Below are positions 12,501 to 56,330 of a DNA stretch of 64,000 nucleotides, one piece after another. The translations under genes and the position numbers were made by a program. The notes below the pieces were generated by a model. It was not told the DNA's origin. It saw only the letters and a program-made list of their open reading frames with translations, and did no database searches. Each line of letters opens with the position of its first letter. Position 1 is the first letter of the stretch. Source of the DNA: Oehlia diaphana. Taxonomy: Eukaryota; Glomeromycota; Glomeromycetes; Glomerales; Glomeraceae. Where the stretch lies: contig QZLH01000002.1 in NCBI GenBank assembly GCA_003833135.1, positions 248,783 to 312,782 on the forward strand. The letters run 5' to 3'.

Positions 12501-13778
12501 GAAAAATTAGAGACCAAGTTATATTTATATTGAAAAGTCGGATTATGGGTTTTTGACTTGCCAAAATAAATAAACGAAAGGAGAACAAGTTAAAACCAGT
12601 TAAATTTCCAATTATGTTACCTAAGTTACCCACATAAATTGTATACAAACCGAAAAAATTGCCTTAATATGGATGATTTCTAGAAAAAGAACCGATGGTA
12701 CATCAATAATTCGATTAATATGGATTAGAACTTTTTAAAAAGAATTTTGAGATGATTGATTAGATTCAAATGCACGAAGCCCCCTAATTCTCTTTGATTC
12801 ATTTCCATTTTAGAGGTTTAATGAGAATAACGAAGTTTTGTTATCGTTCTTCATATTTAGATAAATTAAATTCTATATTTGGAAAGAATATATCATATTC
12901 AGTCTTTTGAATGAAAGACTTATGCCTTGTGATCTAATCCACATGTAACTAACAAATAACATAATTGTTCACATCAAGTATAATATTTTTGATTTTTTTA
13001 ATTTTCTTTTTAAGAAAAAAACCCAAAAAAATGACATCATCTAGTTGAGAATTAAGAAGTATATACTAAATGACGCAATTTTGAATTTAGCCAAAAACGA
13101 TGATCTTGTACGACCTGCGCCATATCATTATTATCATGAGATTTTTCTACTGTCTATCAACACCTAAGCCAACAACCTTTTGTAGTTTACAGTATATCCG
13201 GCAAATTCCATTTTAGAAATCTAGAAATGCTTTTCAAGATATTTTAAGATATATTGTTCATTTATTTCTTTGTTCATTTATTTTTTTGTTCGTTTGTTCG
13301 TTTCTTTGGTAAAATTATAATTTGGAAACTGCGGTACGACTCATATTGAAATCTTTTTTAATTTGCCGGCCTTTATTATTATTTATTCAGGGGTAGTTTA
13401 TTTTTGTCGATCAACACACGAATTTAGTACGATGGTTTTACAATGGTGTTTCCAATGGAAAAACTCATTTATTATTAATCATTCGAATGAAAAGGAAAAA
13501 AGAAAAAAATGAAAAAAAAAGAGAAAAAAATAAAAATCGGTAAATGATTTATCCAACTTCTATGTATCTAATATTCCTTTTATTATTTTCATTTTGAGAC
13601 ATGGCTTTAATTGATGGTTTTTCAATTACTCTAAATTATAATTGTTAATTGTTTTCACTTTTTTGGACACAATTTTAAGCAGTATATATGCCGTCATCAT
13701 AATGGGGCAAAATCTCCGGACAATGCTAATTTTGGTCCTATTGTTCAGCCCAAGGCGTAACACACTGCTCACATTGCT
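12501..13778. other. Intergenic region between divergent MYB-like and Argonaute genes
   Basis: No coding sequence recognised. It must hold the promoters of the two divergent genes. Only the TATA-like site near 13779 is distinctive. A purine-rich stretch lies at about 13493-13540. Confidence 0.4.
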
Positions 13779-13788
13779 TATATAAAAG
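13779..13788 (+). promoter_or_regulatory. TATA box of the Argonaute gene
   Basis: TATATAAAAG lies 62 bp upstream of the ATG at 13850. Transcription start about 30 bp downstream would leave a 5' leader of about 35-40 nt, and no ATG lies in between. Confidence 0.5.
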
Positions 13789-13849
13789 TACCTACCTCCC
13801 TACCTTAAAATTCCAAAAAATTTTATTACATAATTTGAAAAAAAAAACC

Positions 13850-16570
13850 ATGTCAAATATGTCAAATGAAAGAGTAAGAAGAAGGGTAAACGAAAAGGTG
13901 AAAGAAAAATTGAAAGAAATAGAGACTCAACCCGAAATTAGGGACCCAAACGAGCCTCCTGTTCCTATTCTTACACGAAAAGAATATGGTGATGGATACG
14001 GAAAAGTGGGAAGACATGTTGAAGTGAAAGTCAATAGCTTTGAGGTGACAAATATCTCCAAATACGACAAATTTTTCAAGTATAATATTGAGATCAACCC
14101 TATTGATAAGGACATTGAAGTTGACGTCAAGAGGGAAAGGTCAGACTATGGCAAAAGTATTCGACGCAGAGTTCTTAAAGAACTTAGTTTTAAAATGGAG
14201 GATTGGTTTCATGAAGTAGTTTACGCATATGATGGTGGCTCTACCCTCTACACAACGAGTTATCTGGGATTTGATAAAGCGAAAGATGTAAAGGCAGTCG
14301 TAAAGGAAGAAATTAGTATTGCAGATTTACAAAATCTTGATGGCGAACCCACTCGATATAAAGTAATCATTAACCGTTTAGACACTATCATCGAGCTAAC
14401 TCAAATAAATAAGTACATTAATGGAGAAGAATTTGAGTGGGAATTTTTCAGCGACGAAGCTTTTAACGTTCTCAACTCTCTGATCCATAAAGTGGGAATG
14501 GAAAATGAAAAATATATTCAATCCGGCAATAGTTCAATCTATAACAAAGAAAATAAGAAAATTATTAGTGGTGGTGTTGAATTGTGTCTCGGATGGTTCT
14601 CAACCGTAAGGCCAGGCCAGGGAAGCTTGTTCATAAATGTGAACCCTACATACACCACTTTCTATCAACCATTAAATTTAGATAAATTTCTTTTCCAATG
14701 TTTTTTTTCAAAGTATCAAAACCTTCCTAATGAAATTAATGCTTTTCAACTGAAGAAAATTAACGAAATACTCAAAGGCCTACTTGTTAAACCTCTACAC
14801 CTGGAACCTATCCAAACTGGGAGACGTATTAGAAGACTTCTAGCTGCTACCAAAGTAAATCGTTTTAGATATAAGCCAAGAGCAGATTCGGAAGAAACAT
14901 TTCCACTTGAAAGATATTTTAAGGAAAGATATAAACTTAAGGATTCATCAAGACTTTATGTTGAATTAATGACTGACGATGATACAAGTATTGCATGGCC
15001 AGTTGAATTCTGTAAAATTATTGAAGGACAGCGTTATAGCAATAAGAAGTTGTCTGGAAAACAAAGAGGAGAAATAATTTTGCTTGCAAAGTTTAAACCT
15101 TCCATGAATGAACAAGAAACGATCAGAGGAGCTAAAGAAATATTACAATTACAGAATGATCCTACTGGTGTTGGAATGAAAGTTGAACCAAATTTGGCCA
15201 AAGTGGATGCACGTGTAATTAAATCTACGGATGTTAAATATGCAGGAAAAACCATGAAACCTAACAATGGACAATGGAATCTCAGAGATGTCAAGTTTGT
15301 CGAAAGTGGGGAACGCCTCGAATTTTGGCATGTAGTGATTTTTGAACAAAGTAAATGGATGCCCAAGGGAGAAGCTATTAGTTTTATCGAAAATCTCGTA
15401 AGACAATGTGAATCACAAGGGATGAGTATAGCAAGAAATAGACCGGAAATCCAATATCTCCAATATTATAATAAGGGACCTAATGTCGTGAAACAAGCTT
15501 ATGAGGATGCAAGAAATATACTTAGAAGGCCACCACAATTAATAATCTTCATTATTCCTGGTGAAAAGTCACCAATCAATACTGAACTTTACGAAACCAT
15601 CAAACGAGTTATGGATACTGAAATAGGTTGTCTTTCTCAATGTGTAAGCGTAGATTCTAGGAAAAATTTTCGCAGTCCTCAATATTGTGCCAACCTTGCT
15701 ATGAAAATCAATCTTAAACTTGGAGGAGTAAACTCTATTTTACCCGAAGATAAACTACGACTTCCTAGTGGAGAAGAAGTACTCTTTCTTGGTGCTGATG
15801 TAACTCATCCAAAAGATAAGAATGGTAAATCCATATGTGCAGTTGTTGGATCACTTGACAATCAAGCCGGTCGGTTCATTACAAAATATCAAGATCAAGA
15901 ACGTTCCGGAAAGGAAGAAATTCTTGAAATTGATAAATTGATTAAAGAAATCTTGAGGGAATATTGTGATTATCAGAAGAGAAGAAGTAGAGTCAAGAAT
16001 AATGAAGTAATAACACTCCCACCATGTATTATTATGTATCGTGATGGTGTTAGCGAATCCCAATTTGAACGAGTTCTCAGGTGGGAACTTCCAAAGATTA
16101 AGGAAGCATGCAGATTATTCCGGCAAGGTTATGAACCAAAGATCATTTTTTCAGTAGTCGGCAAACGACATCATACGAGAATTTTCCCAGTAGATCCCAA
16201 AAATAGGATGGAAGCAGATAAGAATGGAAATTGTCTTGTTGGAACAATTGTTGACAAAAAAATCACACATCCTACACTTAATGATTTTTACCTCCAGTCA
16301 CACTTTGCAAATCAAGGAACAGCGCGACCATCTCATTATACTATACTTCATGATGATATAAAATTAACAATAGATGAATTTCAAGGTCTAAGTAATACAT
16401 TATGTTATAACTTTCAACGGTCCACATCCAGTGTCAGTATTCCAGCACCTACATATTACGCTCATTTAACTTGTGCTCGGGCGAAAATGTATTTGACAAC
16501 ACATAGGGGGAATATATATTTACCTAACGTGCACAGAAATCTCAAAAATTATCCAATGTATTTTATGTGA
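13850..16570 (+). CDS. AGO: Argonaute protein, intronless, with complete slicer tetrad
   Basis: A single uninterrupted frame of 906 residues. The start is ATG 13850; an alternative ATG lies three codons on, and the frame's upstream TTG is not a plausible start. Argonautes load small RNAs and silence matching transcripts. The order is N-domain, linker, PAZ (roughly 230-390), MID and PIWI. The PIWI block is strongly conserved: FLGADVTHP (D650), KEEILE (E690), MYRDGVSESQF (D732) and SIPAPTYYAHL (H872) form the DEDH slicer set. The MID pocket keeps the residues that bind the guide's 5' phosphate (the Y and K of YETIK, the Q of SQCV, the lysines of MKINLKLGGVN). It ends in MYFM, close to the usual MYFA/MYFI tail. 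Glomeromycotina carry an expanded Argonaute set (known). Most neighbours have introns and this one has none. An A13 run follows the stop codon. Confidence 0.95.
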   Translation: MSNMSNERVRRRVNEKVKEKLKEIETQPEIRDPNEPPVPILTRKEYGDGYGKVGRHVEVKVNSFEVTNISKYDKFFKYNIEINPIDKDIEVDVKRERSDYGKSIRRRVLKELSFKMEDWFHEVVYAYDGGSTLYTTSYLGFDKAKDVKAVVKEEISIADLQNLDGEPTRYKVIINRLDTIIELTQINKYINGEEFEWEFFSDEAFNVLNSLIHKVGMENEKYIQSGNSSIYNKENKKIISGGVELCLGWFSTVRPGQGSLFINVNPTYTTFYQPLNLDKFLFQCFFSKYQNLPNEINAFQLKKINEILKGLLVKPLHLEPIQTGRRIRRLLAATKVNRFRYKPRADSEETFPLERYFKERYKLKDSSRLYVELMTDDDTSIAWPVEFCKIIEGQRYSNKKLSGKQRGEIILLAKFKPSMNEQETIRGAKEILQLQNDPTGVGMKVEPNLAKVDARVIKSTDVKYAGKTMKPNNGQWNLRDVKFVESGERLEFWHVVIFEQSKWMPKGEAISFIENLVRQCESQGMSIARNRPEIQYLQYYNKGPNVVKQAYEDARNILRRPPQLIIFIIPGEKSPINTELYETIKRVMDTEIGCLSQCVSVDSRKNFRSPQYCANLAMKINLKLGGVNSILPEDKLRLPSGEEVLFLGADVTHPKDKNGKSICAVVGSLDNQAGRFITKYQDQERSGKEEILEIDKLIKEILREYCDYQKRRSRVKNNEVITLPPCIIMYRDGVSESQFERVLRWELPKIKEACRLFRQGYEPKIIFSVVGKRHHTRIFPVDPKNRMEADKNGNCLVGTIVDKKITHPTLNDFYLQSHFANQGTARPSHYTILHDDIKLTIDEFQGLSNTLCYNFQRSTSSVSIPAPTYYAHLTCARAKMYLTTHRGNIYLPNVHRNLKNYPMYFM

Positions 16571-43654: not shown

Positions 43655-46600
43655 TTACATTCCACTTGAGACTTTAATACAGTCGACTTTCCTGTGTCTT
43701 TTCAGATCATTATCTTGACAATTTTTACTACAATAATACACTGATTTACACTTTGAACATATTTTTGTAGTATACTTTCTACATCGCTTGCATATATTTA
43801 CTTCATCATATTCTTTATATTCGGTTTCACTATTCCACATATTATGACATACATTTTTCTGCGTCACCTTGGATAAGGTTATCATCTCTGCGGATGAAAT
43901 AATTACTCTTGAACCTATATTAAATTCTAAAATCCAGTCTTTATGATTATCATAGAATGGAATTGGAAGATGAAACGATATCATTATTATAGGTGCCTTT
44001 ATAGAACTTATGGAAACACTATCGAAGTAATAATAATTTGGCTCTTGATTATCATTGTTGCGTTTATTTTTTTGTGTTGTAAAATCACTGGTATGAGTGA
44101 TAGGTTTAATTAATCGTAGCCATATCATCTCTGTTTCTGGACATACTGTTTTTATATATTTACCGTTATACCATTCAAGAGTGTGCATTTTATCCTTAAC
44201 TTTCTTTTTAGTTTCCCATTTCAAAGAGTATCTCGCAATAGGTACTTCTAAATCATTAAGTTCCTTAAGTTTTGAAACAAAGGGCAAACAAAAATGCAAT
44301 GTCATAAAAGTCTTCAACTCAACAAGGTGCATTGCAAAATTTGGAATATACTTATTAAATCCCTTAGATGTAAAAAGGGATTGTAATAATCGTGCCATTA
44401 TTTCTTCAGAAAATCGAATATTCATTATTTGAAACAAATGTACAATTATATTAATACTGAGTCCATAAATACGTTTGTTATGAGCAGTACAACAAGCACT
44501 TGCAACTGATATCACACCATTAATTAATGTATCAAGCTTTTCTTCTTTATCTTTAGCTATATCAAATTTCCATGTAATATATACAGCATAATCTTTAGAG
44601 TAAGCATTTACAAATATAATGCCTGTTAATTTTGAAAGAGTATTTAGACTTAAACCAAGTTGTTGTTCAACAAATTCTTTCATAGAATTATTAGGCGGAT
44701 TATGCAACTTTATTAGTTGCAGAGTTAATCGAGAATTATCCTTTAATCTAGGTGCAGCTGCCAAGATTATATTCAGAAGTGATATATGATCAGCTAAATT
44801 TGAGCAGTCAATAGCGTTAAATCTCACAGATGGAGGCAATCGACAGAGTAGTGTGTCAATGATGTCTCCCAAAACTGGCATAACTTGAATTTGAACTGAA
44901 GAAGTTTTATGTAATGATGCACGTACAGATGCAAACTTTGGTAGTAAAGTCAATAATAAATAATCGTAAAGTGTTAACGGTTGGTCATCATCATCATCAT
45001 CATCTGAATCCTCACTATTTTCAGTATTAATTCGAAATGTACGAAATATACAAGAAGTTGGGTAGACATCATATTCCATTGCGGGAACTGATAACATTGT
45101 GACATTAGGCTTATCAAGAATATTAGAATATACATTAATGTAAGATCGAGCTTGATTACTAATTGGTAGCTGACAACAAGCGTATTCTTTAATATCTTCA
45201 TCCACATAATAGCGTTCTTTAAGGTTTCTTAATATTTCAATTTCTGGTGAAAATTTTCTATCCAATGTAAAACTGAATAAATGATTGGCGTCCCAATTCA
45301 GAGCAAAAGCTGAGAGTGAATTATTTTTCCAATATTGTAATGTTTGTAATATAAAAAATTCTGTATTTGATGAATATTTAAATGAAATCCAAGAGGGAAG
45401 TCTCTTATTGGAACTATCGTTATTGCATCTATTAGATTTTATATTTATTTTATTTTCAAGAGATTCAATTAGACTATGTATGCAACTAGTCAGATTATTA
45501 TATGTATCATCGCTAATAACTTTTTCAGCCCACACTGACAATATTTCCATTACACCGATAACAAAATTTTTATTCCATTGACCATATATACCCTTTTTGT
45601 TTGATGAAGATGGTGGTTTTGGGTCTGGTAATCTATTGATCATTTCAATAAGTACTAAATTACGAGTAAGCGCTGTCGGATTTAAATTATTGATTGTAAA
45701 AAGTAGATTGATATTGTAGTTATGGCTTCCTAACATTGTAAGGTCATATACTGTTTCAACAATGTTAGATAAATCATTAATGCCACCTAAAAATATTGAA
45801 AATTTTTTGTCAAAAATAGTTGTTCCAGTTGTTGAAGTCGAGTTGATGCAGAAATTTTTTAATAGATTGAAACCATATGTATTACTAATAGCATAGAGAA
45901 GTGTCTCTTCATAAAATAAATGAATTCCTGGTCGATTAGAAGAGATGTTAAAATTAATAAAATTTTGATCATTTGATTCATCAAGATAATCAATTCCAAT
46001 TTTATTATCGATCATTTTAACTCGAGCTAGGAGGGAGATGTTTCCCCTCTTGTTAGAATGAATACTGTTATTTTTTATAACCACTCTTCCATGATAGTTT
46101 ATGCCAACTTCAATACCATATGATCTATTATTGTGAATATTATTATTTAAAATAACAGCATCTGTACCTCCTTTGATAATACATCCAGAAGTAATACCAT
46201 TTGCTATTTCATTATTTTCCATTCGCACATTAGCTCCAAAGTCTACGCTAACACCAAAAGCACCATTCTTCAAAATTCGATTCTTTTGTAACACAGCAAG
46301 TGTTTGTGAAGGTTTTGTGTAAGATTCTCTAGGGGGGGGTGGCTTAATAGGTTCACCGAAGGAATCATAAACATAGTTATGAATAAATTGATTAGCTTCT
46401 TTTGATGGTGCTGGTTCACGGTATCCATGGATCAAAATTCCTCCTTGGTTGTCGTAGATATCATTATTAATAAGAATGATTTCTTTGGCATCTAACCATG
46501 CCATAACACCTTTATCGTTGTGATGAATTTCATTATTCTCAACATGTAAACTCGATCCATATCGTACTTCAAATGCACTCAATCCTATATTAAAAATGTT

Positions 46601-47419
46601 GCAATTTGTGACCTTTGCCTTGCTATCACTAGATATTAAAATACCACCATTGTCTCCAATCGAATTGGCAACAACACATTTGTCCATAGAAAGTGTTGTT
46701 TTTCCATAAATGCAAATGGGAGGTGCTGTACCAGAACATTTAGTAAACCAACAATTATTTACAAAAACTTGGGATGCTTCCGTTTGTAAAGAATGTCCTT
46801 CAGTACATTCGATATGAATATTATATAGTATAAGTCTACTATAAAAACCAAAAATTGTATGTTTTTCATAGTTTTTAATTGTCACATTACCGATTCCTAT
46901 GATCACAACGCTTTTTTTAATAATAAGCAAAGTAGCTGTGTATGTACCAGGTCTAAGAATCAAAACTTTGTCTTCTAATAACCAATGGATTGATAATTCA
47001 TTAACTTCTTCATTGTAAATCTGAATCTTCTGCGGAGGCGGAAAAGGCATCTTTTCACGTTGTTGGTTAAAGAGTTTAGCATCATGATCAGTTTCTTCCA
47101 ATACCGCAGCAATTAAAATATTAGCATACGCACATATTGGATTGCCAATTGCAGCATATATCTTTGCAATCATACCGTAAGCTTCTTTATTATATATGCC
47201 ATCCAAACTAATAGACATGTTGAGGTAATCCAAAGCTTTAAGTTGGTTTTCTTTTGTTTCATTACTATTTTCAATAATAGCTTTTGCGAGATTTAAATAA
47301 ATTGTTGACAATTCTTTCCGTTCTTTGTATGAATGTAGCGACGCTTTAGGATGTCTGTCCCAGAAAATTTTCAATTCCTGCATATGGATTTCAAACTTAG
47401 AAATGCCATTGGATTCCAT
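43655..47419 (-). CDS. TPR-like / right-handed beta-helix / DUF4470 / MYND zinc-finger protein
   Basis: A single uninterrupted exon of 1254 residues from ATG 47419. Residues about 1-125 are TPR-like helices (ERKELSTIYLNLAKAII, IAKIYAAIGNPICAYANI). Residues about 150-500 are parallel beta-helix rungs with repeated asparagine ladders (VENNEIHHNDKGVMAW, ILINNDIYDNQGGILI, VIKNNSIHSNKRGNI). Residues about 585-660 match DUF4470 (FSIFLGGINDLSNIVETVYD), a domain found ahead of MYND fingers in fungi. C1210/C1213/C1221/C1224/C1230/C1234/H1242/C1247 form a MYND finger. A Cys/His/Asn-rich beta-helix in an intracellular MYND protein recalls the carbohydrate-binding CASH fold of FBXO11. The ligand is unknown. 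MYND usually mediates protein-protein contacts. A paralogue starts at 62931 on the opposite strand. Confidence 0.85.
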   Translation of the reverse strand: MESNGISKFEIHMQELKIFWDRHPKASLHSYKERKELSTIYLNLAKAIIENSNETKENQLKALDYLNMSISLDGIYNKEAYGMIAKIYAAIGNPICAYANILIAAVLEETDHDAKLFNQQREKMPFPPPQKIQIYNEEVNELSIHWLLEDKVLILRPGTYTATLLIIKKSVVIIGIGNVTIKNYEKHTIFGFYSRLILYNIHIECTEGHSLQTEASQVFVNNCWFTKCSGTAPPICIYGKTTLSMDKCVVANSIGDNGGILISSDSKAKVTNCNIFNIGLSAFEVRYGSSLHVENNEIHHNDKGVMAWLDAKEIILINNDIYDNQGGILIHGYREPAPSKEANQFIHNYVYDSFGEPIKPPPPRESYTKPSQTLAVLQKNRILKNGAFGVSVDFGANVRMENNEIANGITSGCIIKGGTDAVILNNNIHNNRSYGIEVGINYHGRVVIKNNSIHSNKRGNISLLARVKMIDNKIGIDYLDESNDQNFINFNISSNRPGIHLFYEETLLYAISNTYGFNLLKNFCINSTSTTGTTIFDKKFSIFLGGINDLSNIVETVYDLTMLGSHNYNINLLFTINNLNPTALTRNLVLIEMINRLPDPKPPSSSNKKGIYGQWNKNFVIGVMEILSVWAEKVISDDTYNNLTSCIHSLIESLENKINIKSNRCNNDSSNKRLPSWISFKYSSNTEFFILQTLQYWKNNSLSAFALNWDANHLFSFTLDRKFSPEIEILRNLKERYYVDEDIKEYACCQLPISNQARSYINVYSNILDKPNVTMLSVPAMEYDVYPTSCIFRTFRINTENSEDSDDDDDDDQPLTLYDYLLLTLLPKFASVRASLHKTSSVQIQVMPVLGDIIDTLLCRLPPSVRFNAIDCSNLADHISLLNIILAAAPRLKDNSRLTLQLIKLHNPPNNSMKEFVEQQLGLSLNTLSKLTGIIFVNAYSKDYAVYITWKFDIAKDKEEKLDTLINGVISVASACCTAHNKRIYGLSINIIVHLFQIMNIRFSEEIMARLLQSLFTSKGFNKYIPNFAMHLVELKTFMTLHFCLPFVSKLKELNDLEVPIARYSLKWETKKKVKDKMHTLEWYNGKYIKTVCPETEMIWLRLIKPITHTSDFTTQKNKRNNDNQEPNYYYFDSVSISSIKAPIIMISFHLPIPFYDNHKDWILEFNIGSRVIISSAEMITLSKVTQKNVCHNMWNSETEYKEYDEVNICKRCRKYTTKICSKCKSVYYCSKNCQDNDLKRHRKVDCIKVSSGM

Positions 47420-47639
47420 ATCAAAGAATTCTTTTATTTCTATGTGAAGAGTACAGGTTAATATATAGTGAACGTTCCAAAAAAGTTTTTATAAAAGATC
47501 TAGCAATTTGATATATGATTACAATTTGCGGCGTATTTATTAAAAAAAAACGAGCACCAAAAGGTATACATTAATTTAATGTATAATAATAAAGGGTAAT
47601 TCACTTTAAAAAAAAACTACATTAATTTTCTGATCGTTA
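47420..47639. other. Promoter-proximal flank of the beta-helix gene
   Basis: AT-rich; no obvious core promoter motif beyond AT-rich boxes. Confidence 0.3.
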
Positions 47640-49410: not shown

Positions 49411-51220
49411 AAAATCTCGTGTATTTCCTAACTGCTAACTTTATATAGATATGTATTTCATAAATATACGTAACATATATACGTTACGAATTCGAAAATC
49501 ATATTATGATCTTGGAAGGTTCAGAGAATGAAAATTTTATGAAGTTTCTTATCTAACAAGAATCTCAAGAAGTTAAGTTTGTCAAACTAAATTAATCTAC
49601 TTTATAATATTGCACTTAGCCTAACTCATGATAAATTTCATTAAAAGGATTTACACAAATGTACCTACTAACTTTTAAAGCATCTATATTTTCCAAATTC
49701 GAATCTTGCTTCCGTGTCTAATTATTATAATAAAACGGTACGATTTTGAGACATAACCGTAAGTTCAACGCTTATTTTTTTATTGTTAGAATGTTAGATT
49801 ATACTCGCAAAGACCAAAATGGTTCAACAATATGGAAACATGCGACAATGTAATCGTATATGCGTGGTGAAATTATGTGTTGAAAGGAATACAAAAGGCC
49901 ATATTTTAATATTTGAAAGTTTTTCTTTTAAATTAATTAGGAAATTTTCCATAAAAAATAACCTAAAAGCGCGATATAAGGAATTCCACTGACTTTTTCC
50001 GTAAGCATTTCTTCGAGCAAGAGGAGTAGCTTGCCTAGCAATTTCCCGTTAAAATTACCTGAGATAGCTGGTTATCGCATTCACACAATAAGAATAAAAT
50101 AAACCTTATATTTATAAATAAAGATTATCGTATTATCCGAACGCTAATAGCAACATAACAAATTTTGAAGGTATTGATTTGTAATACTTTACGTACATGA
50201 TTATCAAATTTTACAAAAAGAATTTGTAGTATGAAGAGGATCGTAAAATGCAAATCACAAAAATTAAATATAATAGCATTAATAGCATTAATAGCATTTA
50301 GGTAGGTAAACTATCCAACATATAAAATTTATCAATAATTATAATAATTGTCCGGAGCAAAACAAAGGACTATACTCTTTTTTTTTTTACCAATTTTTTT
50401 TTTTGGTAATACTGTACAATAATTTAATTGTTGAACTTGATAATCTATTTTACCATTTAAGGTTCGTATCACAGTTAAACGATAATGTATATCTTCGCCA
50501 TTTCCTTACGTTAATAGGGAGCTTTCTCTTTATATATTTTGTGATATAATTAGTCTGATTAAGGTTTCTTTCTTATCTTGTATTTTCAGGTTTAATCTAA
50601 CCAAAAAAGAATTTAAATAATTATGTCAGTACTCAGTATCACCTTTATTAGTACCTAATGAATATCTTTGCCATTTCTTTATATTAATAAGGGAGCCATC
50701 TTTGACGTAATCGTTACTTTGATTTATCATCTTTATCATCTTTAACACTACTCGCAAGATTAATTATTTAATTGTGAGTTCAATCTCAAACTTAATGATA
50801 GTAATAAGTTATCAGCATTAAATGATATAAATGACTACTGGTCCACTTCGCCTCCTAAAAAATATATCCATATCATCGTAAAATTGCCACGTAAGTGTCT
50901 GGAGTGTCTGATGCAGTCTGTAATTTTTCATCATAATATATTAACACGTATTCACCGGAGTTTATTTTACCAGTTGTTAGAAAATTTGATAAATCTAACC
51001 AAAAAAGAAATTAAACAGGAATTATTGTATCACATTTATTAAATAAATGATTATCTTAATTACTAAGGTTATTTTCTCTAGATAAATTTAACTAAAAAAA
51101 GAAATTATATAGATAGTTAATATCCTAATGATTATCGCAACCCCAAACTATAAGTACCACCGTTTTTTTTTTATTTTTTACTTTTTTTTATTTTTATTTT
51201 CTTTTAAAATTAATGAAATA
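49411..51220. other. Gene-poor region upstream of the transporter
   Basis: No gene seen. It has three copies of TAATAGCAT at 50271-50299. Partly repeated sentences (TTTGCCATTTC ... ATTAATAAGGGAGCC at about 50500 and 50670; AATCTAACCAAAAAAGAA at about 50593, 50993 and a weaker one at 51083) suggest an old local duplication. Confidence 0.4.
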
Positions 51221-53496
51221 ATGTTGTCAGGAGTAGTGTCAAATGTATTAATCTATATTGTATTAGCAATATTCTTAGGAATTGGAATTTACGCAGGATA
51301 TAAGAAAACAAAAAATAAATCTGATTATCTTTCCTCATTGGGTACTCAAAATGCAGTCGCTCTAGGTTCTAATTGGTTTGCTTCAAGTAAGAACTTAATT
51401 ATATGAAGAAAAAGATCCGTTTGAGAAAATTTTTGAGGCGGCGGGTTTGTATAACAGTGTATTTATACGCTGTACAGGTAAGGTGCTCCATCAATGAAAG
51501 TGCCAATGATTGAGACTCGTTTGATGTTATGTAATAATTCGAGGAATTCTTATTATTATGTAAATTATTCACCTTTCGTTGCTGCAAATAATGTGTATAT
51601 AAATTTTCTTTTTTTTTGCATTCACAATCCAGTAATTACTCTTGAATATTTACATAATATCTTTCGATTCTCTGATAAAAATTAATAAAATTTGGATTGG
51701 TACTACGGGTGCTCAACCTTTCATGTGTTTTTAAAATAAAAACTGAAAGGTTGGGCTGAGAAAGCACCGTTAACTACCTGATCAGGGTAATACCTGCGTA
51801 GGGAAGCTGCCACTTCAAATACTCTTTTCATTTACGTCCGGGTTTCATTATTTTATTCTTTCTTCTTAGGTATCGGTTCATCTATATTATATTCTTTTCC
51901 CGAAGTTGGTACCATAGCAGGATTATTAGGCGTAATTATGTATGCTTTTGGAAGTATTATACCTTTATTTGTATTTGCATGGCTTGGACCTTTGATTAGG
52001 AAAAAATGTCCCGAAGGATTTACTTTGACCCAATTTGTTCTGGAAAGATTTGGACGCTTGAATCAAATTTATGTTTCTTTAATGTCAATTGCTTATATGT
52101 TTTGCTTTATGATAAGCGAGTTATCAGCTGTTGGCAATATTTTGGCGACATTGACGGGTGTAGATAAACTTGCTCCAGTTATTTGCATCGCAATAGTTAC
52201 AACTCTTTACACTGGTACTTATCAAGATTCAAAAAAAAAAAAAGTTCTTTTCTTTTACTTCATTCAAATTAAAAATTTTATTATTTTAAATAGGATATGG
52301 AGGTTTACGTGCATCCTTGATCACGGATAATATTCAAGGATGGGCTATTATTTTACTTGTTGTATTGTCTATAATTGGATTGGCAACTTCAATAAGAATT
52401 GAGAAATCAGTTATCGATAATTCCGATCTCTTGAAATCAAATTCTTTAGGATGGCAACTACTTTACATCATGCCCGTTGCAGTCTCATTCGCGACACTTT
52501 TCCACGAGGTATCTAATGAATATTACATACATTTTTATTAATCTCTCTCTTCTTAACCTCGGCTCTTTTCTGTTTTGTTAAGGGTTTCTGGCAACGCGCA
52601 TTTTCATCAAAGAATGATCGTGAATTGCGTCTTTCCGCAGTTTATGGTTCAATTATGTTATTTCCTGTTCTTGTATTTCTCGGTCTCACCGGAATGATAG
52701 CTGTATGGTCTGGATTATGGCCAGGAGAGGAAAATTTAGAAGCATATTTAGCATTTTTCACTTTATTTAAAGTATTACCAGACTGGGTTAGCGGAATTAC
52801 TGTAGTGTTAGCCGTTAGTATGAGTTGTGCTGCTTATGATACATTAATTAGTGCGACAACAGCTAACTTTTCAAATGATATATTTAACAATCGTCTTCCA
52901 TTGAATGTTACTCGTTTTTTATCACTTATTGCTAATGTTCCAGCTGGTAAGAAGAAACCATTTTTTTTTAAAGTGATATTATTAATTGTTTTTTTAACTC
53001 AATCCGTATTTTGGTAGTTTATTGGGGACTGAAAGATTTAGACGTGTTGAGGGTTTTTCTTATTGCAGATCTCTTGGCAGCATCCACAATGCCTCCAATA
53101 TTATTAGGTTTAATAGATTCGCTATACTTTCTCAACTGGATCGACGTATTATTGGGAGGCATAGGAGGTTTATTTGGTGTCTTCATCTTTGGTTCAATTT
53201 TCTATCATAATGCTAAAGACGGAATTGAATTAATCGGTCTACCTTTAGGGCTTTATATTACTGATTATAGTGTATTAGGAGCATTTATTGTTGCACCTTT
53301 ATCTTCAATTTTCTTTACTTTCCTTTCTTTTGGTGTAAGATTGACTAGTGTGTGGGTATTTGCTAAAATTAGGGGAGAAAAGTTTGTGTTCCCTGAGAAG
53401 CCTGAAGTTGTTGATACTAAGAAATATGCTGGTAATAAATTTAAGGATGATACGGAAGCTATTCAATCTTCTGACCCTGATGAAATAGAAATTTAA
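51221..53496 (+). CDS. DUR31: SSS-family (DUR3/DUR31-type) transporter, TPP-riboswitch controlled
   Basis: Five exons (51221-51386, 51870-52214, 52294-52508, 52583-52946, 53018-53496) join in frame to give 522 residues with a dozen or so hydrophobic helices. Signature blocks fit the Na+/solute symporter family: ALGSNWFASS(I)GSSILYSFPE near helix 2, GGLRASLITDNIQGWAI, GFWQRAFSSKNDRELRLSA, and SCAAYDTLISATTANFSNDI. Plasma-membrane uptake of a small solute is expected. Intron 1 is 483 nt, against 68-79 nt for the others, and contains a TPP riboswitch, so thiamine or a precursor is the likely substrate. In Candida, DUR31 is described as a TPP-riboswitch-controlled thiamine transporter. An upstream in-frame ATG at 51128 would add a Phe-rich extension from a poly-T tract, so I prefer 51221. 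Dur3 urea transporters are longer (about 650-700 residues). Substrate is inference. Confidence 0.88.
51475..51480 (+). promoter_or_regulatory. Alternative 5' splice site in intron 1 (CAG|GTAAGG)
   Basis: A near-consensus donor (GT at 51478-51479) lies 91 nt downstream of the productive donor at 51387. Its use would retain 51387-51477, which puts a TGA in frame (51404-51406) and truncates the transporter to about 61 residues. The segment 51470-51480 (CTGTACAGGTA) can pair at 9 of 11 positions with 51775-51785 (TACCTGATCAG) in the riboswitch P4/P5 arm, so the aptamer could mask this site when no TPP is bound. Confidence 0.65.
51691..51819 (+). promoter_or_regulatory. TPP (thiamine pyrophosphate) riboswitch aptamer
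   Basis: All conserved THI-box blocks are present in order. P1 is TTTGGATTGG (51691-51700) with CCACTTCAAA (51810-51819). P2 is ACGGGTGCT with AGCACCGT. A 10-bp P3 is CAACCTTTCA with TGAAAGGTTG, extended by a hairpin GTTTTTAAAATAAAAAC. Next come the invariant GCTGAGA (51755-51761), ACCTGATC (51776-51783), the GGTAATACC segment, and GCGTAGGGAAG (51796-51806). It sits in intron 1, between the alternative donor and the acceptor at 51869, as in fungal TPP riboswitches that control splicing. It binds TPP and should lower expression of the full-length transporter when thiamine is plentiful. Confidence 0.95.
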
Positions 53497-54610: not shown

Positions 54611-56330
54611 TTAAATTAAAATTTTTGACATATAAGGACCATCTAAAGTATAACCTAATTTTTGATAATATTTTCTTACGCCAACACCACTAATAACAGC
54701 TAATTTAGAACTACCATGTTCAAACTTAGCAATTCTTTCAGCCTCCTCCATTAATAAAGTACCATACCCTTGATGTTGAAATTTAGTAGGATCTCTATTA
54801 TGCATAGGTACAACACTACCATAAACATGTAATTCTCTAACAATAGAAGTAGGACAAGAAGTTAATTCGGGGCGAAAGGTGGTCGAAGAACATTTTCTTA
54901 ATCTTAAAAGACCTATTAAAATGTCTTGTTTTGGATCTTCATATGATAAAAACGTTTCCCATCCACCATTTGCTACATAATCTCTTCTTATTAACTCAAC
55001 CTCATCAGGTCTAACTTTATTATGAATATCAACAATACCAACTTCTCTCGTTCTAACATCCCTACATTCAATACCTAAATCTTTCATTCTATTTAATGCT
55101 AATTCACGTAAATTTCCATGTTCAACGCCGGAAGTAACTAATGGCATTGGGATGTCTCTTTGAACACGATATACTCTCGTCCATGGAGGTACCAAAGCCA
55201 ATATTCTCGCCACTAAATCAACTAATGCATTTGGAGTATAATTTTTGTATCTTCCCGTTCTCCATAATTCGTATAAACCAGTTCCGCGAATTACCAAAGT
55301 AGGGTAAATTTTCAATCCATCTGTACGAAATGCTGGATTTTCAAAATATTCTTTAAATTGTTCCAAATCACGTTCCATTCCAACATTTGGTAAATCAGGC
55401 ATCATGTGAGAAACTACTTTATATCCACAATCTTTTGCTAATTGGAATGTCTCTATAACGGCTTTAACAGTGTGACCTCTATTTGTATCTCTCGCAACAT
55501 CCTCGTATACACTTTGAACTCCAATTTCCAATCTAGTACATCCATATCTCAACATTTGACTTAAATGAGGTTTAAGACAATAATCAGGACGTGTTTCAAT
55601 CGTGATCCCAATACATTTTGTCATGCTTTGCTCAGAATATCTTACAGACTCATCAACATCATTTGTTGTATGTCCCGATAATGCATTATGTAGATTAGCA
55701 ATAAACCAATTTCTATAGTCTTCAGGTAATGACATAAATGTACCTCCCATTACAATATATTCAACTTTATCCACATTATGCCCGAGACTTTTTAATTGAT
55801 CGACTCTTCCTCTTGCTTGTTCCAACGGATCATATCTTGCCCTTATAGCTCTCATACTAGTTGGTTCATATCCCGTATATGATTGTGTAGAATATTCAAA
55901 ATCAGAATCTGGTCCTCCCGGACAATATACACAAACATTTCCTGTTACTGCAATATGTGGGCATCTATGTGGTTTACACATAACTGCTACTATCGCAATC
56001 CCTGAAGCTGTTCTAACGGGTTTCGCTTTAAGTTTAGGTAATAATGCCTGTTTATATTGTTCGGGTATAGCTGCTATAATATCAACTAATTTTGGTTGAT
56101 TATTCAATTTATTCAAACGAGAATATTTAGTCTTCAATCCATTTAAGTTAATGTCTTTTGAATTCTCTTGCGCTATTATTAATTCATTAACTATTTCACT
56201 ACAAGCTTTAACCATTAATTCGGCCTACACATTATAAATAAAAAATAAGTTATTAAACTATGAATGATGAATAACGTAATAGAATGTCACTGCAAACCTG
56301 AGTTGGCCCTTTTTTGTTTTTTGTAGCCAT
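54611..56330 (-). CDS. ELP3: Elongator complex catalytic subunit Elp3
   Basis: Two exons (56330-56298 and 56224-54611) join in frame as [26 protein letters not shown], giving 548 residues against about 557 in yeast. Elp3 is the radical-SAM/acetyl-CoA enzyme that carboxymethylates wobble uridine in tRNA as part of Elongator. The Fe-S cysteines are C99, C109 and C112 in [18 protein letters not shown], followed by the highly conserved [20 protein letters not shown] and [25 protein letters not shown] and the [20 protein letters not shown] segment mark the radical-SAM barrel. The C-terminal GNAT lysine-acetyltransferase-like domain has [18 protein letters not shown] and ends [13 protein letters not shown]. 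Exon 1 uses a weak donor (GTTTGC). Nothing is missing. Confidence 0.98.

What the first reader, a model, noticed from the sequence alone, without database searches (positions are those of the whole stretch)
51691..51819. TPP riboswitch inside intron 1 of an SSS transporter gene
Every conserved THI-box block, including GCTGAGA, ACCTGATC and GCGTAGGGAAG, is present with pairable P1, P2 and P3 stems. The host intron is 483 nt while the other four are 68-79 nt. This ties a DUR3-like transporter to thiamine sensing. Known: fungal TPP riboswitches sit in introns of THI4, NMT1 and transporter genes, and Candida DUR31 is described as such a transporter. From memory, Rhizophagus lacks de novo thiamine synthesis genes, which would make uptake essential. 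Inferred: this gene imports thiamine or a precursor from plant or soil.
Basis: partly seen in the sequence, partly recalled or inferred. Interest (0 to 1): 0.93.

Follow-up and report, generated by a model that had tools for sequence, protein, structure and literature searches.

The report
Thiamine-sensing intron in mycorrhizal fungus transporter
An intron of a likely thiamine-importer gene in a Rhizophagus-type root-symbiont fungus contains a sequence matching the TPP riboswitch, predicted to spoil splicing when vitamin B1 is plentiful, which would let a fungus that probably cannot make the vitamin control its uptake.

Summary
The element is real. Rfam RF00059 matches 51695-51821 full length (51.4 bits, E 7e-9). 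That is just under Rfam's cut-off of 54.3, but so are 10 of 10 TPP elements tested beside bacterial homologues of this transporter. It is the only RF00059 place found in the 108.8 Mb assembly. It lies in a 483-nt intron; the gene has three other introns (79, 74, 71 nt), not four. The protein (522 aa, SSF) belongs to the fungal Dur31 / algal SSSP / bacterial ThiV group; a separate DUR3-type gene lies elsewhere. Ligand-free folds pair alpha and mask S2; forcing the aptamer unmasks S2. A stop at 51404 truncates wrongly spliced or unspliced messages at 61 codons. A Funneliformis gene model contains aptamer segments translated at the same intron site. My searches found no report of a TPP riboswitch in arbuscular mycorrhizal fungi. 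TPP binding, splicing response and substrate are untested.

The parts
51221..51386 (+). exon 1 of the SSS transporter gene (55 codons + 1 base; intron in phase 1)
   Evidence: R. clarus model P0003 reads NWFASSIGSS across the junction
51387..51869 (+). intron 1, 483 nt, GTAAGA...TTCTTAG, host of the riboswitch
   Evidence: gene-model breaks at the same site in 35 of 169 assessed homologues
51387..51392 (+). donor S1 (CAA|GTAAGA), gives the full-length protein
51404..51406 (+). in-frame stop TGA between S1 and S2; unspliced or S2-spliced RNA encodes 61 aa
51432..51448 (+). alpha element (contains GGCGGCGGG, 8 of 9 to RGCGGYRRY), 15 predicted pairs with 51803-51819
51478..51483 (+). second donor S2 (CAG|GTAAGG); CAGGTA 51475-51480 is complementary to TACCTG 51775-51780
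51482..51488 (+). GGTGCTC, exact copy of the P2 5' strand; its GGTGCT can pair with AGCACC 51763-51768
51690..51821 (+). TPP riboswitch aptamer (RF00059 match 51695-51821 plus extended P1)
51690..51704 (+). P1 5' strand
51708..51714 (+). P2 5' strand (GGTGCTC)
51763..51768 (+). P2 3' strand (AGCACC), contested by the S2 flank
51803..51820 (+). P1 3' strand = alpha prime, contested by alpha
51868..51869 (+). 3' splice site AG of intron 1, 49-50 nt after the aptamer
51870..52214 (+). exon 2
52294..52508 (+). exon 3
52583..52946 (+). exon 4
53018..53496 (+). exon 5 with stop; spliced product 522 aa, PF00474

Best explanation
Intron 1 (51387-51869) of a likely thiamine-importing SSS transporter gene carries a TPP-riboswitch aptamer match (51690-51821) that is predicted to turn productive splicing off when TPP is abundant. 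Shown by sequence: two donor-like sites (S1 51387, S2 51478) and one acceptor (51869); a stop at 51404 in the S1 frame; an alpha element (51432-51448) complementary to the P1 3' strand; a copy of the P2 5' strand just after S2. Predicted without TPP: alpha pairs with 51803-51819. This pulls S1 and the acceptor together, cutting the S1-to-acceptor path from 483 to about 95 nt, near the size of the gene's other introns. The P2 3' strand and ACCUG pair over S2 and hide it, so S1 is used and the 522-aa protein is made. Predicted with TPP: the ligand holds P1, P2 and P4/P5 together, alpha is released and S2 is exposed. S2 is then used, or the intron is retained, and the stop truncates the product at 61 aa. 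Inferred: the protein imports thiamine, and the switch sets uptake in a fungus that has lost thiamine synthesis.
For: RF00059 full-length match with intact binding motifs, the only place found in the genome (49 of 1645 first-look candidates scored). Alpha matches the published Type II consensus RGCGGYRRY at 8 of 9 (consensus from PMC5882874). Alpha-alpha' -19.7 kcal/mol against -12.2 for P1; S2 flank against the P2 3' strand -10.6 against -10.8 for P2 itself. Nulls: whole upstream region to aptamer pairing reached by 1 of 500 shuffles and 1 of 209 other window segments; S1-S2 region to P1' reached by 2 of 2000 shuffles; S2 flank to P2 3' strand reached by 18 of 2000. In ligand-free folds over 5 spans x 2 temperatures the alpha core pairs have mean probability 1.0 and S2 is 0.22-0.29 unpaired; with the aptamer forced (3 spans, 37 C) alpha pairing is 0 and S2 is 0.57-0.89 unpaired. 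Stop after 61 aa, as after 58 aa in C. parapsilosis DUR31 (PMC5997356). Funneliformis caledonium model P0005 carries translated aptamer segments at the same intron junction (E 5.4e-5 and 0.001; 0 of 5000 shuffles). [quoted passage not shown] Glomeromycotina rows monophyletic (99/97), as vertical inheritance predicts.
Against: The RF00059 score is under the curated cut-off. The computed gap between free and aptamer-forced folds is about 10 kcal/mol (-140.5 against -130.2; 9-11 over three spans), more than TPP binding is likely to repay at equilibrium, so switching would have to be co-transcriptional. S1 itself hardly changes accessibility between states (0.39-0.41 in spans that hold exon 1). 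In C. parapsilosis DUR31 thiamine mainly raised unspliced RNA and S2 use was not thiamine-dependent (PMC5997356). The S2-flank pairing is the weaker leg (45 of 1000 shuffles in a broader test; 13 of 2745 window segments do as well). Alpha and S2 pairings rest on one sequence: no related intron DNA was obtained, so there is no covariation test. No RNA, binding or uptake data.
Confidence: 0.72

Rival explanations
1. Same riboswitch, simpler mechanism: TPP binding blocks use of S1 or folding of the intron, so the intron is retained; alpha and S2 play little part, as reported for Candida and Ogataea DUR31.
For: PMC5997356 found mostly unspliced RNA with thiamine and a single-donor intron that still responds; a stop at 51404 makes retention sufficient for shut-off.
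Against: Alpha and S2-flank complementarity exceed most shuffles; S1 is not made less accessible when the aptamer is forced.
Confidence: 0.2
2. The aptamer is a relic: it no longer binds TPP or changes splicing.
For: Score below the Rfam cut-off; no expression data.
Against: All binding motifs and the 18-nt G-G spacing are intact; aptamer segments survive, as translation, in a Funneliformis caledonium model whose protein is 69% identical; SAR11 elements beside homologues score 38.1-52.0, mostly lower.
Confidence: 0.06
3. The transporter imports a thiamine precursor (HMP) or another solute such as urea or polyamine rather than thiamine.
For: SAR11/algal SSSP proteins are proposed HMP or thiamine transporters (PMC4260697 passages); databases name many homologues 'urea transporter'.
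Against: Published AM genomes lack thiamine phosphate synthase and HMP kinase (PMC12574304 passage), so HMP would be useless; the genome has a separate DUR3-type gene, and this protein matches DUR3 structures only at E about 1e-4.
Confidence: 0.15

Closest known systems
Neurospora crassa NCU01977 intron riboswitch (Type II of Mukherjee 2018; Li & Breaker 2013 itself not held, known via PMC5882874)
   Same: Dur31-group transporter, aptamer in a long internal intron, several donors, alpha between S1 and S2 complementary to the P1 3' strand.
   Different: Intron 483 nt against 602 (N. crassa, PMC5997356) or the 650-900 range of PMC5882874; alpha 8 of 9 to the consensus; here a P2-strand copy also sits at S2.
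Candida parapsilosis / Ogataea DUR31 intron riboswitch (PMC5997356)
   [quoted passage not shown] parapsilosis); in-frame stop between donors after 58 aa (here 61).
   Different: Intron 351 bp, and long-range pairing was judged unlikely there; lineage is Ascomycota; the second donor there is non-consensus (GTTGGA), here GTAAGG.
SSSP / ThiV transporters of SAR11 and algae with TPP riboswitches (PMC4260697)
   Same: Same transporter group (Pelagibacter P0086 is 32% identical to the R. clarus orthologue) and same riboswitch class.
   Different: There the riboswitch sits in the 5' leader or UTR at the start of the gene, mostly without splicing.
Mucoromycota TPP riboswitches (PMC11683625)
   Same: Early-diverging fungal TPP riboswitches.
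   Different: There on THI4, NMT1 and sugar-transporter genes in medically relevant species; other transporter groups were reported largely absent in most Mucoromycotina.

Membership tests
TPP riboswitch (RF00059) | significant full-length covariance-model match | tested here: met
   51.4 bits, E 7.1e-9, positions 1-105
TPP riboswitch (RF00059) | Rfam's curated gathering score 54.3 (a cut-off, not a structural feature) | tested here: not met
   51.4; 10 of 10 SAR11 elements beside homologues also fall short, 38.1-52.0
TPP riboswitch (RF00059) | conserved binding motifs CUGAGA, CUGAU, UAAU, GCGUAGGGAA and the 18-nt G-G spacing | tested here: met
   sequence; spacing rule from PMC5882874
TPP riboswitch (RF00059) | TPP binding | not testable with these tools
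   needs in-line probing
Dur31 / SSSP / ThiV transporter group | SSF domain, about 500 aa | tested here: met
   PF00474 9.7e-18, 522 aa
Dur31 / SSSP / ThiV transporter group | groups with Dikarya 'urea transporter' homologues and SAR11/haloarchaeal relatives, apart from DUR3 | tested here: met
   tree: 28 fungal rows together at 100/99 (the chytrid Batrachochytrium row falls outside); the 39-row set with SAR11 and haloarchaea only 90/94; DUR3-like row outside, on a long branch; DUR3 structures only E about 1e-4
Dur31 / SSSP / ThiV transporter group | direct grouping with characterised C. albicans / C. parapsilosis Dur31 or NCU01977 | not tested
   no row of the listed hits bears those names (one search listed 120 of 1273)
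Dur31 / SSSP / ThiV transporter group | thiamine transport | not testable with these tools
   needs uptake or pyrithiamine assay
Type II fungal TPP switch | alpha between S1 and S2, consensus RGCGGYRRY, complementary to P1 3' strand | tested here: met
   8 of 9 at 51437; 15 predicted pairs, reached by 2 of 2000 shuffles
Type II fungal TPP switch | intron of 650-900 nt as given in PMC5882874 | tested here: not met
   483 nt; N. crassa's own is 602 (PMC5997356), so the range is descriptive
Type III fungal TPP switch | two donors with an in-frame stop between them | tested here: met
   S1 51387, TGA 51404, S2 51478; use of S2 not shown
Type III fungal TPP switch | intron of 200-400 nt | tested here: not met
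   483 nt

The most novel reading that the evidence does not exclude
The intron is a two-decoy splice switch older than the split of Glomeromycotina and Dikarya. Spare copies of one strand of P1 (alpha) and one strand of P2 (at S2) tear the aptamer apart when TPP is absent, at once docking S1 to the acceptor and covering S2. In a fungus that lost thiamine synthesis it survives as the genome's only TPP sensor, acting as the gauge by which an obligate root symbiont draws vitamin B1 from its host or soil.
Probability: 0.42. Interest if true: 0.78.

Novelty: new member of a known kind. Interest (0 to 1): 0.62.

Why it matters
AM fungi are reported to lack thiamine synthesis, to which their resistance to axenic culture has in part been attributed (PMC11134847 passage). 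My searches listed no paper whose title is on a thiamine importer or thiamine-responsive regulation in them. This locus names a candidate importer, found once in the assembly, and gives a built-in, RNA-level readout (S1/S2 splice ratio) of the fungus's TPP status in soil, spores and arbuscules, measurable in existing RNA-seq. It also extends the intron riboswitch of the Dur31 group to Glomeromycotina and gives a sequence-level model of the splice decision that can be tested in yeast.

Tried and rejected
Rfam at default cut-off: nothing in the window; the permissive search was needed. tRNA scan: none.

Thiamine-gene absence by Pfam (Thi4, NMT1, TMP-TENI, TPK) is not usable. The same route missed the window's own SSF gene and TPK. 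Yeast protein queries: Thi4 and Thi5 0 places, Pdb1 control 7 places, but yeast TPK also 0. A fungus that uses thiamine should have TPK, so diverged enzymes are probably missed by this search; the absence of Thi4/Thi5 here is supportive only, and the published surveys carry the claim.

I hoped to compare intron DNA from other AM fungi.

KLRLYP at the end of intron-site inserts in P0145, P0160 and P0207, and MLAW(E/G)TCCR in P0029/P0055, look by eye like translated aptamer or alpha sequence of other fungi. Back-translation is ambiguous and the window's two tested aptamer frames did not match the inserts of P0145, P0160, P0207, so I do not count them.

Chance complementarity as the source of alpha/S2 pairing: judged unlikely from shuffles and real window segments. 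Against me: S2 flank with the whole aptamer is weaker (45 of 1000 shuffles); 13 of 2745 other 23-nt segments pair with the P2 3' strand as well; and without asking for the exact GCGG core, 21 positions on the + strand and 35 on the - strand of the window reach 8 or more of 9 to the alpha consensus.

Full report
What is there. The window lies in a 108.8-Mb, 1672-contig assembly. The transporter's protein is identical over 515 columns to a Rhizophagus diaphanus model (99%), so I infer a Rhizophagus species or a very near one. RF00059 matches 51695-51821 on the + strand over the whole model (51.4 bits, E 7.1e-9). Rfam's gathering score is 54.3, so the default scan of the whole window lists nothing. 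In the whole assembly it is the only place with E <= 0.001, though only 49 of 1645 first-look candidates were scored. The RNA 51690-51825 folds at -45.8 kcal/mol, z -5.06, 0 of 200 shuffles as good. GCUGAGA, ACCUGAUC, UAAU and GCGUAGGGAAG are all present, and the J4/5 G's are 18 nt apart (sequence), as PMC5882874 (passages) describes.

The gene. Exons 51221-51386, 51870-52214, 52294-52508, 52583-52946 and 53018-53496 give a 522-aa protein with one Pfam domain, SSF PF00474, E 9.7e-18. A protein search of the assembly found 5 places, all its own exons. The genome has another SSF gene on contig C47 whose open frame matches DUR3 structures at E 2.6e-64. The window protein matches DUR3 structures only at about 1e-4. 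A 44-row tree puts the window protein inside a monophyletic set of 11 Glomeromycotina rows (99/97), sister to 8 Dikarya rows (94/91). Endogonales, Kickxellomycotina-type and anaerobic gut fungi lie outside, and bacterial, haloarchaeal and SAR11 SSS proteins beyond (fungal group names recalled). The rooting is midpoint only; the DUR3-like row sits on a long branch that meets another, and the chytrid Batrachochytrium row falls outside the fungal set, also on a long branch. The gene therefore looks vertically inherited in the group that others call Dur31 (fungi), SSSP (algae) and ThiV (bacteria); see PMC5997356 (abstract, Results and Discussion sections read) and PMC4260697 (passages). No characterised Dur31 was among the listed hits, so that name rests on the literature's account of the group, not on a direct comparison.

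Is the sub-threshold score a worry? I scanned bacterial homologues as a yardstick. Of 80 Pelagibacter-type loci fetched, 20 were scanned at the gathering score, with no hit. Ten of those 20 were scanned permissively: 10 of 10 have RF00059 ending 3-16 bases into the transporter match, 38.1-52.0 bits. The window's 51.4 bits is thus near the top of what elements of this transporter group score here.

Conservation of the intron and the aptamer. Of 233 homologues returned (the last listed 120 of 1273), I left out 24 distant ones (P0093-P0116) and 28 that I classed by hand as prokaryotic. Of the remaining 181, 12 could not be assessed. Of 169, 134 read through the junction at residues 55-57 (5 of these are barely alike just upstream), and 35 gene models break there: 12 start exactly at 56/57, 11 carry an insert and 12 lack or replace part of the stretch just upstream. 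Annotation software stumbling at one site fits a conserved, hard-to-call intron, but does not by itself show a riboswitch. One model does. Funneliformis caledonium P0005 (69% identical protein) carries a 42-aa insert at the junction, whose segments PDQVNACVGKLP and KLRKDWAEKVPL match the window's aptamer translated in two frames (E 5.4e-5 and 0.001 in the 233-protein set). None of 5000 shuffles of the insert reaches either score, and the ten other inserts tested do not. Segments of the aptamer from GCUGAGA to GAAGCUGCC are therefore present, as translation, at the same intron site in another AM genus. The alpha region of that species is not visible.

How it likely works. Two donors share one acceptor: S1 (CAA|GTAAGA, 51387) gives the protein; S2 (CAG|GTAAGG, 51478; near the donor consensus as I recall it) leaves a TGA at 51404 in frame, so S2-spliced and unspliced RNA would both end after 61 codons. 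C. parapsilosis DUR31 has the same layout with a stop after 58 codons (PMC5997356). PMC5882874 (section 7, part 1 of 2 read) describes, for N. crassa NCU01977, an alpha element of consensus RGCGGYRRY between S1 and S2 that pairs with the P1 3' strand when TPP is low. The best match between S1 and S2 here is GGCGGCGGG at 51437, 8 of 9. In the 64-kb window, positions scoring 8 or more number 21 on the + strand and 35 on the - strand; with an exact GCGG core, 2 and 5. It lies within a predicted 15-pair helix, 51432-51448 with 51803-51819, the very strand used by P1: -19.7 kcal/mol against -12.2 for P1. Just after S2, GGTGCTC copies the P2 5' strand exactly and can take its partner (-10.6 against -10.8 kcal/mol), and CAGGTA of S2 is complementary to TACCTG of the aptamer.

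Controls. Pairing of the 308 nt upstream with the aptamer is reached by 1 of 500 dinucleotide shuffles and 1 of 209 real segments; S1-S2 region with P1' by 2 of 2000 shuffles and 1 of 709 segments; the S2 flank with the P2 3' strand by 18 of 2000 shuffles and 13 of 2745 segments. An earlier, less specific S2 test gave 45 of 1000, and an earlier alpha test 10 of 1000. In ligand-free folds over five spans and two temperatures, the five core alpha pairs have mean probability 1.0, the S2-flank/P2 pairs 0.99 and S2 is 0.22-0.29 unpaired. Forcing the aptamer (three spans, 37 C) abolishes both and leaves S2 0.57-0.89 unpaired, while S1 hardly changes in spans that hold exon 1. With alpha paired, the path from S1 to the acceptor shrinks to about 95 nt, near the 71-79 nt of the other introns. 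So the predicted order is: low TPP, S1 docked and S2 hidden, protein made; high TPP, aptamer formed, S2 exposed, truncated product. The about 10 kcal/mol gap between the states looks too large for simple equilibrium switching, so I infer a co-transcriptional choice. All of this paragraph's switching is prediction; the sequence elements are observed.

Why thiamine. The Candida Dur31 proteins transport thiamin by genetic evidence (PMC5997356). AM fungi are reported to lack thiamine synthesis (PMC6007072, PMC11134847, PMC12574304; passages), including thiamine phosphate synthase and HMP kinase (PMC12574304), which would make HMP import pointless. In this assembly yeast Thi4 and Thi5 find nothing while yeast Pdb1, a subunit of a TPP-dependent enzyme, finds 7 places. 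Yeast TPK also finds nothing, so the test cannot exclude diverged genes.

Known or new. No paper in the open library holds 'TPP riboswitch' with 'Rhizophagus'. 'Riboswitch' with 'Glomeromycota' gives one plant-microbiome review (listing only). 'Riboswitch', 'arbuscular mycorrhizal' and 'thiamine' together give four papers whose titles are unrelated (listing only). 'Thiamine transporter' with 'arbuscular mycorrhizal' gives seven, none by title on an AM fungal transporter (listing only). 'Rhizophagus irregularis' with thiamine, transporter and fungal gives 48, of which 15 were listed and 4 opened at passages. 'TPP riboswitch' with 'Mucoromycota' gives one, PMC11683625 (passages): THI4, NMT1 and sugar-transporter switches in Mucoromycota of medical interest, with other transporter groups largely absent in most Mucoromycotina. 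Subscription papers and preprints were not searchable. The kind is known; the lineage, the auxotroph setting and the P2-copy at S2 are the new parts. I file it as a new member of a known kind, between Types II and III of PMC5882874.

Noticed in passing
51213-51221: ATG AAA TAA: a two-codon upstream ORF whose stop overlaps the transporter's ATG (TAATG).
   Followed up: no
L007 (G000:C47:179618-180268): Another SSF gene of the genome, of DUR3 urea-symporter type (E 2.6e-64 to DUR3 structures).
   Followed up: partly
homologues P0001, P0002, P0005, P0007, P0011 of the window gene: Public AM fungal gene models appear wrong at intron 1: P0001 lacks 7 residues, P0002 seems to start in the intron, P0005 translates riboswitch segments.
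   Followed up: partly
P0067 (Jimgerdemannia flammicorona): Endogonales, which reportedly also lack thiamine genes (PMC11134847), have a homologue of the same transporter; whether it has a riboswitch is unknown.
   Followed up: no
P0051, P0052, P0056, P0057, P0062: Bacterial (Gaiellaceae MAG) and haloarchaeal relatives of this transporter lie near the fungal group; their riboswitch status was not checked.
   Followed up: no
P0145, P0160, P0207: Ascomycete gene models end their insert at the same intron site with KLRLYP, possibly a translated riboswitch or alpha piece.
   Followed up: partly
13730-16570 +: 946-aa open frame with ArgoN, L1, Mid and Piwi domains: an Argonaute gene in one open frame.
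   Followed up: no
43655-47488 -: 1277-aa open frame with right-handed beta-helix, DUF4470 and MYND finger.
   Followed up: no
54611-56224 -: ELP3 (Elongator) open frame, convergent with the transporter gene.
   Followed up: no
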